Shown here in pieces: positions 4,801-61,277 of a DNA stretch of 64,000 bases (positions are counted from its first letter, which is position 1; each line of letters begins with the position of its first letter). Below the pieces are notes generated by a model that searched no databases, was not told the origin of the DNA, and saw only the letters and a list, made by a program, of their open reading frames with translations. The translations under genes and the position numbers were made by a program. The stretch spans positions 248,001 through 312,000 of the forward strand of contig JADGFI010000006.1 of the NCBI GenBank assembly GCA_016743945.1, given 5' to 3'. This DNA is from Desulfobacteraceae bacterium. GTDB taxonomy: Bacteria > Desulfobacterota > Desulfobacteria > Desulfobacterales > Desulfobacteraceae.

Positions 4801-7800
4801 AAACCGCGGGATTACGTCCCTCCATAATCCATGATTTACCACCAAGTACAACCCTGGCGTTGGAATCAACAGACAAAGAAAATTGGCCATACCACGACTC
4901 AGCATTATCAGTGGAACCAATATCCACAAGAGCCGTTAAGGTTAACAGCGTTCCTTTATGGGCATCAAACACCACACTATTTTTACTCGGGGTCACTCGC
5001 ATGTGATAGGCAATACCGCCCCCCAGGGAATACACAGTTAAGGGAAGAGGGCTTAAAGGTAATCGAGACGGAACTTTGAGTTGTACCTGCCAATACACAA
5101 AAGAAGCGGCACCCTCACCCTCACTACCCACCTCAAAAAGTCCTTCCATGCCTTCAAAAAGACCTGCCACCTCCACCGCAAGCCCAGCCTTAAAACGGTC
5201 ATCTTCAAGGGCTAAGGTACCCCCCATATCAAAGGCAGGCTTATGGATATCAAGGGTCATCTCTTTGGTAAAGACAACCTTACTTTTATACACTTCAAAT
5301 CCTGTACCCATTTTTGCAAGGCTGGCAAGATTCAAATCCCCTGCCACCGCAAGAAACAACCCATCGCCATCCACATACCCAAAGCCAATCTCCTTAATCG
5401 TCAGGTCAACACCTGCAAGGCTCACGGTATAGTTCACCTCGGATGAAACGCCGGCACTGTCAATTTTTACGGTGGTGGCGTACACCTCGATTCCGGAAAG
5501 GGTCAGCTCAGCGGGCAGGGCCGACAAAACAGACTCTTTGTTCATGGTAACCTTGGTATCCATGGAAAAATAGAGACCTCCATCCGCCGACTCATAACCT
5601 GCCCCAAACTTGCTTACCTCCAGGTTTGCAAAACCGGCATTAGCGGTGAACTTCTGACCGGTTTCACCACCCAGCCCCCATTCATCAACGCCGTCATTAT
5701 CCAGGGTTAAATGGGCCGCAACCAAAAGTCCAAAGAATTTTTCCAGGGTGAGTTCCATGCCAAGGCTTCCGGCCGAGAGGGCAAAGCTATTATCAAACTC
5801 AAGGGAGGCCTCGGTGAGAAGCGCCCCAAAGCCAAGACTTGCACTCAAATCAACGGTTTTACCATCAGCAAGGGAAACTTCGCCTAGTATACCATCGGCA
5901 GAAAAGGTCAAATCATCCACATCAAAGACAATCTGTGTCTCTTCATAGGGAATGGCAATGAGGCCACCCACCGTCACGGAGCCCTGGGCGAAATTAAAGG
6001 AACCACTGACATTACGCAGATCAATACTTGTACCCGGCAGGGTGAGTTTTGATCCCTCACCTGCGGCAAAACCATAGGCACCGTCAAGAAAATCAATGGC
6101 TGGGGATATGCTGGTTTTATAGCCTTCCCCGAAGGCAAGACTGCCGTCAAGACCGCCGAGCACAAACATATCGGTAATTTCTTTTTGGGTGGAATCAAAG
6201 AGGATGGAAATGCTGGAGAGAACCGCATCAACGCCATAATTATCATCTTCAACCACATGGAGGGTTTTGGAGCCTGACCAATTCACCGTACCCTGCAAAC
6301 CGCCGCCTGTAAGCCCAAGATCGCTTATGGAAACCCCTTCCAGCGCGGGCAGTGCACCCACCGCATTGAAGCTGATGGTTCCGCCAAGCACACGACCATA
6401 GGGACTGCCACCTGCCATACCCACTTCAAACCCATCAACAGAAGCGTTAAAGAATTTGGTGTTGATAGGAATAGAGGAATCCGGGGCAAAAACAATGGCA
6501 CCACTGAGAAATTTCGGGTTGCTCAGATCCGAGAGATCAAATTGCACATCTTTTATGGTGACCGGTAACTCACCAAGGGCATTTTTATAGCCCTCCGAAG
6601 GGATGGCGTCCATAAGGGCACCAAGATGCAACCCGCCCTCCACCTCAAAACCTGCCTCGTTGGAAAAGGCAATGGAACTGCGCAGGGTGAAATCACCAAT
6701 GGCAACGGTGAGATTATCAGCACCAAAGGACACCAACTCAAAATGGGGTGAATTATGATAGAGCCTGGCTGTTGCTGTAACTTCCTGCCCGGCCATATTG
6801 ACACCACCGGAAAGAGCGATCCAGAAACGATTATCCTTTACCCCAAAACCATATTCGCTGAGCAACATGGCCATGGAGTCATTAATGGCAATGGTTGCTT
6901 TGGGAATCTTCTGCATGCCGAGTCCGGCATCGGCCAGGTCCAACGCATCCTTGTAAATCTTTAACCCGTCAAAATCAAAGGTTTGGGGCAGATCCCCAAT
7001 GGCCTCATTTTCCAGAGCCAGATTACCATCAAGATCGACAAAAAAGGGTTCACCACCAAAACCGCCGCCAATGGCAATGGCGTCCAGGGTCAGGGTGGCA
7101 AACCCACCAATGGTCAACGGCTTGTCAATCTCATCCGCCGTTACGCTAAGCTTGCTAATCCCCTTATTCCCCAAAGCAACACCGACGCCAATGGACAGAT
7201 TGTCAAACATGGCAAGTTTAATATCACCGGCAATGGAACCGGAAATGGCATTGGCCGCCACACCAAAGGAGAAAGAGGTGATGTCTGCACCAAAGCCTGC
7301 AATCTTAAAACCACTTGTCAGGCTGCCCAAATCAACATCAACCTCACCCGTGGTGGAAACACCGGAAGCCGACAGCACCAGGGCGTTTGCCTGGGTTAGA
7401 CCCACAGAACCACCGCCCAGATCAGATGGCAGCTGAATTTTACCCCAGACTTTCATCCGCTTGTCCTTGAGATAAAGACGGCCGTTAAGCTTGTCAACAC
7501 TGAAGGAGGTTCCAGGAATGGAAAAGGAAAGGCCAGATTGCAGACGCTCTGCCTCTTTTTGTGCCGCCTCACTTAAATCCCCAAGGGTAGCTACACCCCA
7601 GGTGATACCGTTATCGGCAAGCATCCTAAGCTGGGTGACAGGCTCAGCCATGTCATAACCAGGTCCAAGTTCAATGGCGCCATCAAGATCGGTCAGACGA
7701 ATTTTATCAAGAACATCTGTTGCCGTGGTATCAACGGCAACAGTTAACTCACTCAAGAAGAGATCAATACCATATTCTCCTGTGAGGACAGGGATCCTTA

Positions 7801-22376: not shown

Positions 22377-22424
22377 AGGGCCAGTAACAATAACCTTCCA
22401 CTTTATCATAAAAAGGAAGTCAAA

Positions 22425-25199
22425 ATGACGATCCTCAGCATAAATAACAACCATGTCTCCTTTCAGGAGGGCCAGACCATCTTGGAAGTGGCCCGGGAAA
22501 ATCAAATTGAAATCCCGACCCTCTGTCATCTATCAGGCTGTACCCCCACGGGCCAGTGCCGTATCTGCGTGGTGGAGGTGGAAGGGGTCAGCGAACTGTT
22601 ACCGGCCTGCGAAACTTTGGCCGGGGAAAACATGAAAATCATGACCCACAGCCCCATGGTCATGGAGGCCAGAAAGACGATTCTGGAAATGCTCATCACC
22701 TCGGGCGCCCATAACTGCCTGGTCATGGATTCCCCCACCTTTTCCTGGAGTTCCAACCAGATGGGCATCATGTCCAAGCCATGGCATGATGCCCTGTGCC
22801 CGTCTTACGGCGACTGCCGTCTCCAGGATCTGGCAATCGAATACGGCATCACGGTCCGGGAGGAGGACCTGGCCTGGGAGGACCATCCCCTGGATGATGC
22901 CACTCCCATTATTGTCCGGGACTTTTCACGGTGCATCGGCTGCGGCCGCTGTGTCCAGGCCTGCAACGATGTCCAGGTCAACCTGGCCATCACCCCACCC
23001 TGGGGCCGCCGGGCCGACCATCCCGATGGCTGGTATCCTATTGCCGATTACGAGGCCTGCACCCATTGCGGGGAGTGCATCCAGGCCTGCCCGGTGGGGG
23101 CTTTGTTTGATAAAAAATCCTTTGGCAAGGCCCCGGCCAACGAGGCGGACCTCATCCGGACCACCTGCCCTTACTGCGGGGTAGGCTGCCAGCAGCTTCT
23201 CCACGTAATTGACGAAAAAATCGTCAAGGTCACAGGGGTGGGAGACGGGGCTCCCAACATGGGCAGACTCTGCGTCAAGGGACGGTTCGGCTACGACTTT
23301 ATCTACTCGGACCAGCGGATCAAAATGCCCCTGATCCGGAAGAACGGCCAGTTAAAGGAGGTCTCCTGGGACCAAGCGCTGGATTATGCGGTGGACCGCC
23401 TCAAGACCATCATTGCCGAGTCCGGGCCCGATGCTGTGGCCGGCGTGAGCTGCGCCCGGAGCATTAACGAAGATTCCTATCAGATGCAAAAACTTTTCCG
23501 GGCGGTGTTCAAGACCAACAACATCGATCATTGTGCCCGCACCTGACATGCGCCGACCGTCGCAGGTCTTGCGGCATCATTTGGTTCAGGCGCCATGACA
23601 AACTCCTTTGGAGAATTTTCAAAGGCAAAGATGTTTTTTGTAATCGGGTCCAACATGACCGAAGCCCATCCCGTGGCGGCAACCTTCCTGAAAAATGCGG
23701 TCCAGAACGGGGCCTCCCTGATCGTGGCAGACCCCAGAAAGCATAAACTAGCAGAATTTGCCGATGTTCACCTGGGACTTAGGGTGGGATCGGACATTGC
23801 CCTGCTCAACGGGCTCATGCACGTTCTGATCCGGGAAAATCTCTACGATAAGGAGTTTGTAGATAACCACACCCTGGACTTTGACAAACTCAAATCCGTT
23901 GTGGCACAATATCCGCCACAACGGGCCGCCGAACTCACCGGCCTTGCGGCCGAAACCATCGAGGATGCAGCCCGCCGCCTGGCAGCAGTCAAGCCGGTCA
24001 TGCTCTGCTATACCCTGGGCATCACCGAGCATACCTGCGGCCGGAACAACGTGGTTTCGACGGCCAACCTCCAGATGCTTCTGGGCAACATGGGAATGGA
24101 GTGCGGGGGCGTGAACCCCCTGCGGGGCCAGAACAACGTCCAGGGAGCCTGTGATATGGGGGCGTTGCCCAACGTTTTTCCCGGATACCAGGCTGTCATT
24201 GATCCCAAATCCAGAAAAAAGTTTGAAGAATTTTGGCAGGTAGACCCTTTGCCGGACAAAGACGGGCTCATGATCCCCCAGATGATGGAAGGCCTTGAAA
24301 CCGGCAAGGTCAGGGCTTTTTATATCTTCGGAGAGAACCTGGCCAACACCGAACCGGACATTACCAAGGTGGAAAAGGAACTGGCCAGCGCCGAATTTCT
24401 CATCTGCCAGGACATCTTCCTCAACGAGACCACCGAATTCGCCCACGTGGTCTTTCCGGCTGCGGCCTGGAGTGAAAACGACGGCACCTTCACCAACTCC
24501 GAACGGCGGGTAAGCCGGGTGAGAACCGCAAGTCCCCCGCCGGGGGAGGCCAGGCCCAATTGGTGGATCTTCCGGGAAATTGCCAAGCGATTCGGGCAGG
24601 AATGGAGGTCAGACAGCGCACAAAAGATCTGGGACAACGAACTCGCCCATCTCGCCCCGGCATTTGGCGGCATCAAGTACCACCGTATTGAGCAGGACGG
24701 CCTCCAGTGGCCTTGCCCCACAGAATCCCATCCCGGCACAGGCGTCCTCCATAAAAAGGGGGCCTTTACCCGGGGCCAGGGCCTCTTCCTGCCGGTGGAG
24801 TGGACCCCTGCCGCCGAAGTGGCAGATGCAGACTATCCCTTTGTCCTGAGCACCGGCCGAAGGCTTTACCACTACCATACCCGAACCCAGACCGGCCGGT
24901 GCCAAGGGCTCAACGATCTGCTCGGCGAAGAAACCGCAGATATTTCCCCCCTGGATGCCCAGGCCCTGGACATCGAACACGGAGAGTATATCCGGGTCGC
25001 TTCCCGGCGAGGCCAGGTGCGGGTGAAAGCAAATATCACAAACACCGTGCCCAGGGGCATGGTGTGGATGGCCTTCCACTTCAGGGAAAACAACGCCAAC
25101 TGGCTGACCAACCCGGCATTTGATCCCATCACCCTAACGGCCGAGTACAAGGCCTGTGCCGTGACCATCGAAAAAATCGAATCCCAACCGAATATTTAA
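22425..25199 (+). CDS. fdhA: Selenocysteine-containing formate dehydrogenase, catalytic subunit
   Basis: 924 residues if the in-frame TGA at 23544-23546 is read as selenocysteine 374. Before it are an N-terminal 2Fe-2S domain (LCHLSGCTPTGQCRICVV), two 4Fe-4S motifs (CIGCGRCVQAC, CTHCGECIQACPVG) and the CPYCGVGC cluster of the molybdopterin domain. The Sec sits in DHCARTU followed by HAPTVAGLA, the usual position of the metal ligand in formate dehydrogenases. After it come the rest of the molybdopterin domain and the dinucleotide-binding domain (GRRLYHYHTRTQTGR). A SECIS hairpin follows the TGA directly. It oxidises formate or reduces CO2. The tungstate importer downstream suggests a tungsten cofactor. 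Standard gene callers would split it in two. Confidence 0.95.
23559..23575 (+). promoter_or_regulatory. SECIS element of fdhA
   Basis: A 5-bp stem (GTCGC/GCGGC, one G-U pair) with loop AGGTCTT begins 12 bases after the TGA codon at 23544-23546. The AGGUCU loop and distance match the bacterial SelB-binding hairpin of E. coli fdhF. Confidence 0.85.
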
Positions 25200-58927: not shown

Positions 58928-59197
58928 ATGGACACAGAAAAACTGGCTAAAATATTCAAGGCACTGGGACATCCCACCCGGATAAAAATTGTGGAGCACC
59001 TGATGGAGATGGACACCTGTGTGTGCGGGCAAATTGTCAATATTTTCCCCTATTCCCAGTCCACCATCAGCCAGCACCTGAAACTGCTCAAGGAATCCGG
59101 GATTGTCTGCGGTGAAGTGGAAGGGCCCAAAACCAGATTTTGCGTTGACAAACACGCCCTGAACCAGGTCAAAACCTATATGGAAAATCTAAAATGA
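58928..59197 (+). CDS. arsR: ArsR-family metal/metalloid-responsive repressor
   Basis: 89 residues, a typical ArsR length. Winged helix with ALGHPTRIKIVEHLMEMD and recognition helix QSTISQHLKLLKESG. Cysteines C31 and C33 in DTCVCGQ match the arsenite-sensing CxC motif of ArsR, with more cysteines at C61 and C72. It precedes hgcA by 13 bases and sits behind a palindrome, so it likely autoregulates and controls hgcAB. Arsenic control of hgcAB by a linked ArsR-type protein has been described in Pseudodesulfovibrio; here the inducer is inferred. Confidence 0.9.
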   Translation: MDTEKLAKIFKALGHPTRIKIVEHLMEMDTCVCGQIVNIFPYSQSTISQHLKLLKESGIVCGEVEGPKTRFCVDKHALNQVKTYMENLK

Positions 59198-59210: not shown

Positions 59211-60386
59211 ATGAACACCAATAAAAATTCTCCCATGGAGAGAACGCAGCTATCCACTTCCGGCGTAACACTCATGCCCTCCATGGATAAAATTAAGGAT
59301 AAGATCAAAAACAATTACGGTGACCCTGTATCCGTCTATGAAAAACCCGGCTACAGTCTGTGCCTCTATGTGGATGGGTTTATCACCACGGATACAGGCC
59401 CTGTGCCAAGGATACGAACAACTCTTTCCATACAGGATCGAATATCCACCTTCATTGTCCGGTGCGGAATCAACCGCTATCAATACAGGGTAGCCCCGGG
59501 GCTGTATGGAGTGGGTCAGCCTGACAAAACATCAGAGGTGCTTGTCACTGCAAACTTCAAGCTGACCTTTGATCATCTGCGAAAAGAACTTGCCCCCCTT
59601 AACGCATGGATACTGGTCCTGGATACCCGGGGGATTAATGTCTGGTGTGCGGCCGGGAAAGGAACCTTTGCCACCCGGGAACTTGTAAACCAAATTAAAC
59701 AGGCGGGCCTTAATAAAATAGTCGATCACAAACGGGTCATTGTGCCCCAGTTAGGTGCCACCGGGGTCTGTGCAATGGCAGTGAAAAAAGACTCCGGTTT
59801 CCGGGTGATTTATGGTCCGGTGCGGGCCAATGATATCCCGCAATTTCTGGGAAAAAACCGAAAGGCCACACCCTCCATGCGGGCCGTTACCTTTACCTTT
59901 ATGGAAAGGATCGTCCTGACCCCGGTGGAACTGCAAATTGTGCTCAAACCCGCATTGATAACTGCCCTGATTCTCTTTGTCCTTTCAGGCCTGGGACCGG
60001 GATTTTTTTCTTTTACAGAGGCCTGGTCCCGGGGAGTTACTGCCATTATTTTTCTTGTAACCGGCATGGTGTCAGGGGCGGTGATCACCCCGGCTCTCCT
60101 GCCCCATATCCCCGGCAGAGAATTTGCCCTCAAAGGCATCATTATCGGCAGCCTGGCGGGTCTTGCCATGCTGGCGATGACTTCATCGGCAATACCCTCT
60201 TTTTGCGCCGGACTTGCCCTATTCCTCTTCTGCCTGACCATCAGTTCATTTTTGGCCATGAACTTTACCGGCACCACCCCCTTCACCTCCCCTTCAGGGG
60301 TTGAAAAGGAAATGAAACGGCATATCCCCATCCAGTTAATCACCCTGGTTCTGACTGCCGGGCTCTGGCTTTACTCAGCGTTTTAA
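59211..60386 (+). CDS. hgcA: Mercury methyltransferase corrinoid protein HgcA
   Basis: 391 residues. The N-terminal cobalamin-binding domain holds the diagnostic cap motif GINVWCAAGKGTF, with C146 as the lower-axial cobalt ligand. Residues about 245-391 form five transmembrane helices (for example ITALILFVLSGLG, LITLVLTAGLWLYSAF). Length and architecture are normal for HgcA. It transfers a methyl group from a corrinoid to Hg(II) together with HgcB. ArsR is upstream, hgcB 18 bases downstream. Confidence 0.97.
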   Translation: MNTNKNSPMERTQLSTSGVTLMPSMDKIKDKIKNNYGDPVSVYEKPGYSLCLYVDGFITTDTGPVPRIRTTLSIQDRISTFIVRCGINRYQYRVAPGLYGVGQPDKTSEVLVTANFKLTFDHLRKELAPLNAWILVLDTRGINVWCAAGKGTFATRELVNQIKQAGLNKIVDHKRVIVPQLGATGVCAMAVKKDSGFRVIYGPVRANDIPQFLGKNRKATPSMRAVTFTFMERIVLTPVELQIVLKPALITALILFVLSGLGPGFFSFTEAWSRGVTAIIFLVTGMVSGAVITPALLPHIPGREFALKGIIIGSLAGLAMLAMTSSAIPSFCAGLALFLFCLTISSFLAMNFTGTTPFTSPSGVEKEMKRHIPIQLITLVLTAGLWLYSAF

Positions 60387-60404: not shown

Positions 60405-60695
60405 ATGAAAAAATTTAGACATTTAGAAGCGGTATCCACCCTGGTGCTGGATGACGACAAGTGTATCGGCTGCAGCCTGTGCACCGAGGTCTGCCCCCAC
60501 CATGTGCTGGAAATGCACCAAGGCAAAGCCAGAATTGTTGACTTTGATGCCTGCATGGAATGCGGGGCCTGTGTCAACAACTGCCCCTCTGAAGCTCTTA
60601 GGGTTACCCCCGGGGTTGGCTGAGCCAGCTACATTATCCAGGTCTGGATAAAGGGCAAAGAAAATGCATCCTGCGGAGACGGCGGGTGCTGCTAA
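60405..60695 (+). CDS. hgcB: HgcB ferredoxin with predicted selenocysteine at residue 73
   Basis: 96 residues if TGA 60621-60623 is read as selenocysteine. The first part has two 4Fe-4S motifs (C20, C23, C26, C30 and C50, C53, C56, C60; the second reads CMECGACVNNCP). The frame after the TGA continues ASYIIQVWIKGKENASCGDGG and then the vicinal C95-C96, the usual HgcB tail. The TGA follows PGVG, exactly where other HgcB proteins have a conserved cysteine (Cys73 of Desulfovibrio ND132 by my recollection). A SECIS-like hairpin with AGGUCU loop lies 10 bases after the TGA. Without readthrough the protein would lose U73 and the C-terminal cysteine pair. HgcB reduces HgcA and may deliver mercury through its thiols. 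Confidence 0.88.
60634..60651 (+). promoter_or_regulatory. Predicted SECIS element of hgcB
   Basis: TTATCC-AGGTCT-GGATAA: six perfect base pairs around the hexaloop AGGUCU. The loop begins 17 bases after the TGA (18 in fdhA of this window), as in the known bacterial elements. Confidence 0.85.
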
Positions 60696-60710: not shown

Positions 60711-61277
60711 ATGTACAATAAAAAATTTAAGGGAGATGTCTGCAGCCACAGCCATTCATTTTTTCTGGATAATTTTGTCCGCAGGATCCTCCAGAACCCA
60801 AAGCGGATTATAGGAGAATATATCCGGGAAGGCGACACCAGCATAGACCTTGGGTGCGGCCCGGGTTATTTTTCCATTGACATGGCACAGCTTGCCGGCA
60901 AGACAGGAAAAATGATCGCAGTTGATCTGCAAGAAGAGATGCTGACCAAGGTGGGAAAAAAAGCCGCTGCCAAAAACATGTCCGAAAGGATACATCTCCA
61001 TCAATGTGATCAAAACCGTATTGGCCTGCCCCCCGAAACAAAGGCAGATTTTATTCTTGCCTTTTATATGGTCCACGAAACCCCGGACAAAGGAGCATTT
61101 CTGGAACAGGTCAAAGAACTTTTACGGCCCGGCGGCAAGTTTCTCCTGGTGGAACCCATATTCCACGTATCAAAGATCCAATTTGAAAAGATTTTGGCGG
61201 TTGCCGGAAAAATCGGATTTAAACAGGTTGACAGGCCCAAACGAAAGGGCGGCAGAAGTGTGCTGCTCTCAATTTAA
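60711..61277 (+). CDS. Class I SAM-dependent methyltransferase next to hgcB
   Basis: 188 residues. SAM-binding motif SIDLGCGPGYFSIDMAQ, acidic motif MIAVDLQEEML, and a later YMVHETPDKGAFLEQVKELL then RPGGKFLLVEP. The start follows the hgcB stop by 15 bases with AAGGAG, so the gene is cotranscribed with hgcAB. Substrate unknown; a link to mercury, arsenic or thiol methylation is inference from location only. The first residues CSHSHSFFLDNF are rich in His and Cys. Confidence 0.85.
   Translation: MYNKKFKGDVCSHSHSFFLDNFVRRILQNPKRIIGEYIREGDTSIDLGCGPGYFSIDMAQLAGKTGKMIAVDLQEEMLTKVGKKAAAKNMSERIHLHQCDQNRIGLPPETKADFILAFYMVHETPDKGAFLEQVKELLRPGGKFLLVEPIFHVSKIQFEKILAVAGKIGFKQVDRPKRKGGRSVLLSI

What the first reader, a model, noticed from the sequence alone, without database searches (positions are those of the whole stretch)
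60405..60695. HgcB encoded as a selenoprotein (Sec at the conserved Cys73 position)
Seen: hgcB reads open to TGA 60621-60623, then for 23 more sense codons in the same frame with an HgcB-like tail ending Cys-Cys. The TGA codes residue 73, right after PGVG, where HgcB has a conserved cysteine needed for mercury methylation. A perfect hairpin with AGGUCU loop follows at SECIS distance. Known: selenocysteine is used in this genome (fdhA in this window). Inference: Sec replaces the functional thiol, perhaps speeding transfer of Hg(II), which binds selenolate very strongly, or making HgcB harder to poison or oxidise. I am not aware of a described Sec-HgcB.
Basis: partly seen in the sequence, partly recalled or inferred. 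Interest (0 to 1): 0.97.

Follow-up and report, generated by a model that had tools for sequence, protein, structure and literature searches.

The report
Selenocysteine form of mercury-methylation protein HgcB
This gene for HgcB, one of two proteins that bacteria use to make methylmercury, has a UGA codon where other HgcBs have an essential cysteine, and the cell likely inserts selenocysteine there; selenocysteine HgcB was already predicted in print, and here every HgcB found in this bacterium's family has the UGA.

Summary
hgcB (60405-60695) is open for 72 codons, has TGA at codon 73, then 23 codons that match the HgcB tail and end Cys-Cys. Residue 73 is Cys in 118 of the 120 listed database hits. 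The genome encodes tRNA-Sec, SelB and SelA. The UGA is followed by a 7-bp hairpin with the AGGUCU hexamer also seen behind the Sec codons of this window's fdhA and E. coli fdhF. Relatives decide it: all 55 family genomes with an HgcB match (of 86 searched) have TGA at codon 73, and 54 of 57 distinct Sec genes keep the 7-bp stem against 2 of 40 Cys genes.

The novelty claim is wrong: a 2026 review lists HgcB (NF040864, motif GVGU) as a selenoprotein, citing Haft & Gwadz 2023, and a 2024 PNAS paper mentions it. So this is a new member of a known kind. Added here: the form is fixed in the family, sporadic elsewhere (one Bacillota locus with a different hairpin), and its recoding signal freezes the codons of residues 77-82. 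Why selenium sits at this thiol is untested.

The parts
58928..59197 (+). ArsR/SmtB-family regulator gene upstream of hgcA
   Evidence: NF033788 71.1 bits, cut-off 55; a homologue lies in 29 of 60 Sec-hgcB loci
59211..60386 (+). hgcA, corrinoid protein, cap helix NVWCAAGK with the Cys kept as Cys
   Evidence: NF040863 437.2 bits, cut-off 275; translation
60405..60695 (+). hgcB, 96 residues with Sec predicted at 73 and Cys-Cys at the end
60621..60623 (+). TGA codon 73, predicted Sec codon, at the conserved Cys73 position
   Evidence: TGA at this codon in all 55 HgcB-bearing family genomes
60634..60651 (+). SECIS-like hairpin, 7 bp with GGUC apical loop (6 bp with AGGUCU)
   Evidence: kept in 54 of 57 distinct Sec genes
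22377..25196 (+). fdhA, a second predicted selenoprotein gene in the window (TGA 23544-23546), used as internal comparison; the stretch given runs from stop to stop

Best explanation
The gene at 60405-60695 is likely a selenoprotein form of HgcB: the UGA at codon 73, in the place of HgcB's conserved Cys73, is predicted to be read as selenocysteine by the cell's SelB/tRNA-Sec machinery under direction of the hairpin just downstream. Shown by sequence: the TGA at codon 73, the conserved tail after it, the hairpin and its conservation in relatives, genes for tRNA-Sec, SelA and SelB, and hgcA next door. Inferred: that Sec is actually inserted. Inferred further: HgcB, a dicluster ferredoxin, reduces the HgcA corrinoid, its C-terminal Cys pair delivers Hg(II), and residue 73 is the relay ligand that takes up the methylmercury product (model in PMC7305189); a selenolate there would be ionised at cell pH and bind Hg species more tightly than a thiolate, favouring capture and hand-over of mercury. 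That benefit is untested.
For: Full-length HgcB score 123.2 against 99.2 bits without the tail. Residue 73 is Cys in 118, Leu in 1 and cut off in 1 of the 120 listed hits (918 hits in all). tRNA-Sec 73.2 bits, cut-off 47; SelB 342.3 bits, cut-off 242.25; SelA 611.4 bits, cut-off 267.9. Family search: 55 of 86 genomes have an HgcB match at E <= 1e-25, one each, all with TGA inside; reading all 55 puts it at codon 73. Order search: 9 more loci in 8 genomes of 6 other families have TGA at codon 73. Pattern scan of genome contigs: 60 of 62 stretches are HgcB with TGA at 73; 2 are chance. Hairpin: 7-bp stem in 54 of 57 Sec genes, 2 of 40 Cys genes; synonymous recoding P < 0.05 in 27 of 57 against 1 of 40; AGGTNT hexamer in 51 of 57. 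Codons 77-79 and 82 are ATT 98%, ATC 96%, CAG 96%, ATA 54 of 54 in Sec genes, while neighbours such as codon 88 (Ala in 54 of 57, four codons, commonest 35%) vary. 44 of 66 distinct Sec genes use TGA again as their terminator, so the decoding is local.
Against: No protein data. The window's own hairpin is only modestly better than chance. The Sec genes are mostly one clade, so the hairpin shows invariance, not compensatory change. Three of 57 Sec genes (L062, L074, L114) lack the standard hairpin. Genomes G375 and G685 (holding L074) show no tRNA-Sec above cut-off, perhaps because they are incomplete. P0002, 77% identical, has Leu at 73.
Confidence: 0.93

Rival explanations
1. The TGA is a true stop and a 72-residue HgcB with both clusters is the product.
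For: The 72-residue piece alone just passes the NF040864 cut-off (99.2 of 99 bits); a 72-residue database entry P0038, 89% identical, ends at the same point.
Against: The tail after the TGA keeps its amino acids while synonymous sites outside the hairpin vary; 60 of 66 distinct Sec genes end Cys-Cys; losing residue 73 and the Cys pair would remove residues whose mutation abolishes or cuts methylation by 95% in ND132 (PMC7305189 passages).
Confidence: 0.03
2. A sequencing error or a recent nonsense mutation: the gene is broken.
For: The genome is a draft of 341 contigs.
Against: TGA at the same codon in 55 of 55 HgcB-bearing genomes of the family, including single-contig assemblies G257 and G353, and in 60 GTDB loci.
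Confidence: 0.01
3. UGA is read as another amino acid (Trp, Cys) by suppression.
For: Not tested directly; no proteomics.
Against: Full Sec machinery is present, a SECIS-like hairpin follows, and the same genes use UGA as terminator in 44 of 66 cases.
Confidence: 0.02
4. Role of selenium: Sec73 serves redox repair or protection (an easily re-reduced ligand in cells that meet oxygen or oxidants) rather than tighter mercury binding.
For: General selenoprotein chemistry (recalled). Nothing measured here.
Against: Nothing measured here; the family is of sulfate reducers, and Cys forms live in other families of the same order.
Confidence: 0.25

Closest known systems
Sec-HgcB of Haft & Gwadz 2023 (10.1128/jb.00259-22; not held, not read), listed in PMC13188914 as NF040864, motif GVGU, WP_250697400.1
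   Same: Same protein family, same motif GVG-Sec at the Cys73 position.
   Different: No difference found. I could not see their taxonomic range or hairpin analysis.
Cys-type HgcB (Pseudodesulfovibrio/Desulfovibrio ND132 and others, NF040864)
   Same: Two 4Fe-4S motifs, residue 73 position, Cys-Cys tail, next to hgcA.
   Different: TGA instead of a Cys codon at 73; frozen codons and hairpin behind it.
Formate dehydrogenase selenoproteins (E. coli fdhF; fdhA in this window)
   Same: Same AGGTCT hexamer behind the Sec TGA, starting at nt 18 (fdhF, fdhA) or 17 (hgcB).
   Different: Unrelated protein; different lower stem.

Membership tests
HgcB (NF040864) | Score above the curated cut-off | tested here: met
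   123.2 bits, cut-off 99
HgcB (NF040864) | Two CxxCxxCxxxCP cluster motifs | tested here: met
   Cysteines 20/23/26/30 and 50/53/56/60
HgcB (NF040864) | Conserved Cys at 73 | tested here: not met
   Codon is TGA; predicted Sec, the selenium analogue. The published Sec subform has exactly this.
HgcB (NF040864) | C-terminal Cys pair and adjacent hgcA | tested here: met
   Cys95-Cys96; hgcA 437.2 bits, 18 nt upstream
Bacterial selenoprotein | In-frame UGA at a position that is Cys in homologues, with a conserved frame after it | tested here: met
Bacterial selenoprotein | SECIS hairpin shortly after the UGA | tested here: met
   In silico only:
Bacterial selenoprotein | tRNA-Sec, SelA, SelB in the genome | tested here: met
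Bacterial selenoprotein | SelD in the genome | not tested
   No search made
Bacterial selenoprotein | Selenium present at residue 73 | not testable with these tools
   Needs mass spectrometry
Sec-HgcB of Haft & Gwadz | Motif GVGU | tested here: met
   PGVG-TGA against the review's table

The most novel reading that the evidence does not exclude
In this family of sulfate reducers mercury methylation is obligately selenium-dependent: HgcB exists only as a selenoprotein, so methylmercury formation by Desulfobacula, Desulfotignum, Desulfobacter-like and related bacteria would rise and fall with selenium supply, and Sec has been recruited to this one thiol more than once (a Desulfobacterales clade and Bacillota with a different hairpin), marking residue 73 as the chemically decisive mercury ligand.
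Probability: 0.5. Interest if true: 0.7.

Novelty: new member of a known kind. Interest (0 to 1): 0.42.

Why it matters
If Sec is inserted, HgcB in this whole family is cut to 72 residues in ordinary annotation (P0038 is one such entry), so surveys that rely on full-length hgcB would misread it. It also makes a concrete prediction, that methylmercury formation by these sulfate reducers needs selenium, and points to residue 73 as the ligand where binding chemistry matters. A Baltic Desulfobacula MAG expresses hgc genes at or above gyrB (passages of PMC9494745), so the group is environmentally active; I did not check that MAG's hgcB.

Tried and rejected
Premature stop, sequencing error and non-Sec suppression were considered and rejected on the family-wide conservation. 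Sec in HgcA: looked for, because the review lists a Sec-HgcA; the window's HgcA and the cap-helix motifs read (106 of 120 loci gave a motif) all have Cys in that motif; six further HgcAs read also have Cys. Val80 as a mark of the SECIS: 52 of 57 Sec genes but 0 of 40 Cys genes have Val80; it is not exclusive, because 52 of the 118 Cys database hits, picked for similarity to the window, have Val80 (P0001 taken out), as do Cys genes L128, L241, L242. Independent origins: on the HgcA tree (124 rows, quick method) 62 of 65 Sec rows form one all-Sec group (support 100); L062, L074 and L115 stand apart, 4 changes, 2 forced by starred branches. On a 41-row subset (15 of the 62, 24 Cys, L115, L074) joining L115 or L074 to the main group is not rejected (p 0.19 and 0.204), so more than one origin is shown at best for L062. 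A full-set test did not finish. Rows dropped: L078 and L083 (chance matches) before all counts; duplicates by 48-nt stretch, by hgcB stretch or by HgcA piece; L114 (fragment) from the tree; ten loci that my first expression missed were read later and are all Cys73. Pattern limits: the scan needs Pro69 and an exact motif, so Sec forms with AGVG would be missed; class-level searches of Bacillota could not be run. The order search listed only part of its matches, so Sec outside the family is a lower bound.

Full report
Observation. The window carries an ArsR-family gene (58928-59197), hgcA (59211-60386) and hgcB (60405-60695) on the + strand. hgcB has TGA at codon 73, after PGVG, and then 23 codons ending Cys-Cys. 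Read through, it scores 123.2 bits to the HgcB model; cut at the TGA it scores 99.2. The cluster cysteines carry the same numbers as in ND132 HgcB (passages of PMC7305189), so the TGA is exactly at Cys73. In ND132, Cys73 to Ala abolishes methylation and loss of both C-terminal Cys cuts it by 95% (same passages).

Machinery. The genome has tRNA-Sec (73.2 bits), SelB (342.3 bits) and SelA (611.4 bits), all above their curated cut-offs. The tRNA-Sec model matches weakly in all 14 control genomes but passes its cut-off in 5; SelB passes in 2 of 14 and SelA in 1 of 14 controls. SelD was not searched. The window also holds a formate dehydrogenase gene with a TGA inside.

Hairpin. Behind the UGA stands UUAUCCA-GGUC-UGGAUAA. 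The hexamer AGGTCT also follows the Sec TGA of this window's fdhA and of E. coli K-12 fdhF, fetched as a control. Alone the window's hairpin is only modestly better than shuffles (16 of 200 as good).

Relatives. In the window's family 55 of 86 genomes have an HgcB match at E <= 1e-25, one each, and each contains a TGA. I read all 55: TGA at codon 73 in every one. The other 31 genomes have no match at that threshold. In the order search (389 genomes, 164 with a match above the cut-off, match list cut) 9 loci in 8 genomes of 6 other families also have it; several of these are MAGs with 5-8% contamination, but G016 and G051 are at 95% completeness and 1% contamination. In an even sample of the phylum 84 of 297 genomes have HgcB and only the window's own has TGA at 73; five others with a TGA are Cys73 genes with the TGA further on. 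The GTDB pattern scan gave 62 stretches, 60 of them HgcB with TGA at 73: mostly Desulfobacula, Desulfotignum, Desulfamplus and other Desulfobacterales, among them the isolates Desulfospira joergensenii DSM 10085, Desulfocicer vacuolatum DSM 3385 and Desulfamplus magnetovallimortis; one is labelled Desulfobulbaceae (L074), one Defluviitaleaceae (L062), and one is a fragment in a Syntrophomonadaceae MAG (L114).

Selection for the signal. Among distinct stretches, 57 Sec and 40 Cys, the 7-bp stem is present in 54 and 2. Folding energy averages -10.1 against -6.9 kcal/mol. Against synonymous recoding, 27 of 57 Sec stretches and 1 of 40 Cys stretches pass P < 0.05; the medians are 0.053 and 0.37. 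Codons 77-79 and 82 are almost frozen in Sec genes and free in Cys genes, while codons on either side vary in Sec genes too. Thus the RNA signal is written over the helix that follows residue 73, and it favours Val at 80 (52 of 57, against 0 of 40 Cys genes), though Cys genes with Val80 exist. 44 of 66 distinct Sec genes stop at a second UGA about 20-25 codons later, which fits local, hairpin-dependent decoding.

History. On an HgcA tree of 124 rows, 62 of 65 Sec rows form one group with no Cys row inside; L062, L074 and L115 stand apart. Joining L074 or L115 to the main group is not rejected. L062 and the fragment L114 share a different, later hairpin (seen by eye in the folds), so a second origin in Bacillota is likely but rests on two loci. 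tRNA-Sec is above cut-off in 12 of 14 genomes tested, missing in G375 and in G685 that holds L074; SelA is present in 9 of 9.

Literature. The review PMC13188914 (passages) lists mercury methylation ferredoxin HgcB, NF040864, motif GVGU, and a Sec-HgcA, citing Haft & Gwadz 2023. [quoted passage not shown] Haft & Gwadz is not held, so I cannot say what range or hairpin they describe. Searches for hgcB with selenocysteine, with selenoprotein, and with Desulfobacteraceae and UGA gave 1, 3 and 0 papers, none describing family-wide fixation as far as the listings and passages show.

Mechanism. Shown: codon, tail, hairpin, machinery genes, conservation. Inferred: Sec insertion. Inferred further: residue 73 relays methylmercury in the model of PMC7305189, and a selenolate would bind it more tightly. 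Verdict: a sound new member of a published kind; the open part is why selenium is used and whether methylation in this family depends on it.

Noticed in passing
60711-61277 +: SAM-dependent methyltransferase gene right after hgcB, nearest NCBIfam names ArsM-type and corrinoid-associated CpaM, all below cut-off; homologues in only 5 of 60 Sec-hgcB loci.
   Followed up: partly
P0002 (database protein): Close relative (77%) with Leu at 73 and the Sec-type tail: a possible Sec-to-Leu change or an error.
   Followed up: no
L115 (Desulfobacterales MAG SI037S2_bin45), TGA near 6174 of the reverse strand: HgcB whose first 72 codons are nearest Cys genes (70% to L142) but whose tail is nearest Sec genes (89% to L073), with HgcA among Cys rows: recombination or convergence.
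   Followed up: partly
L081 / L125 (Desulfobacteraceae Glo_11): A second in-frame TGA in the tail right after Cys90; a second Sec or an assembly error.
   Followed up: no
L243 (G654:C363): Cys73 HgcB with a TGA further along in the tail before a Cys-rich end; might be a Sec at another place.
   Followed up: no
L114 (Syntrophomonadaceae MAG), about 600-720: hgcB fragment without its first cluster motif and with GVG-TGA: a remnant.
   Followed up: partly
L085 and L087 (one MAG, Meg22_24_Bin_127): Two different Sec-hgcB loci in one MAG; two copies or contamination.
   Followed up: no
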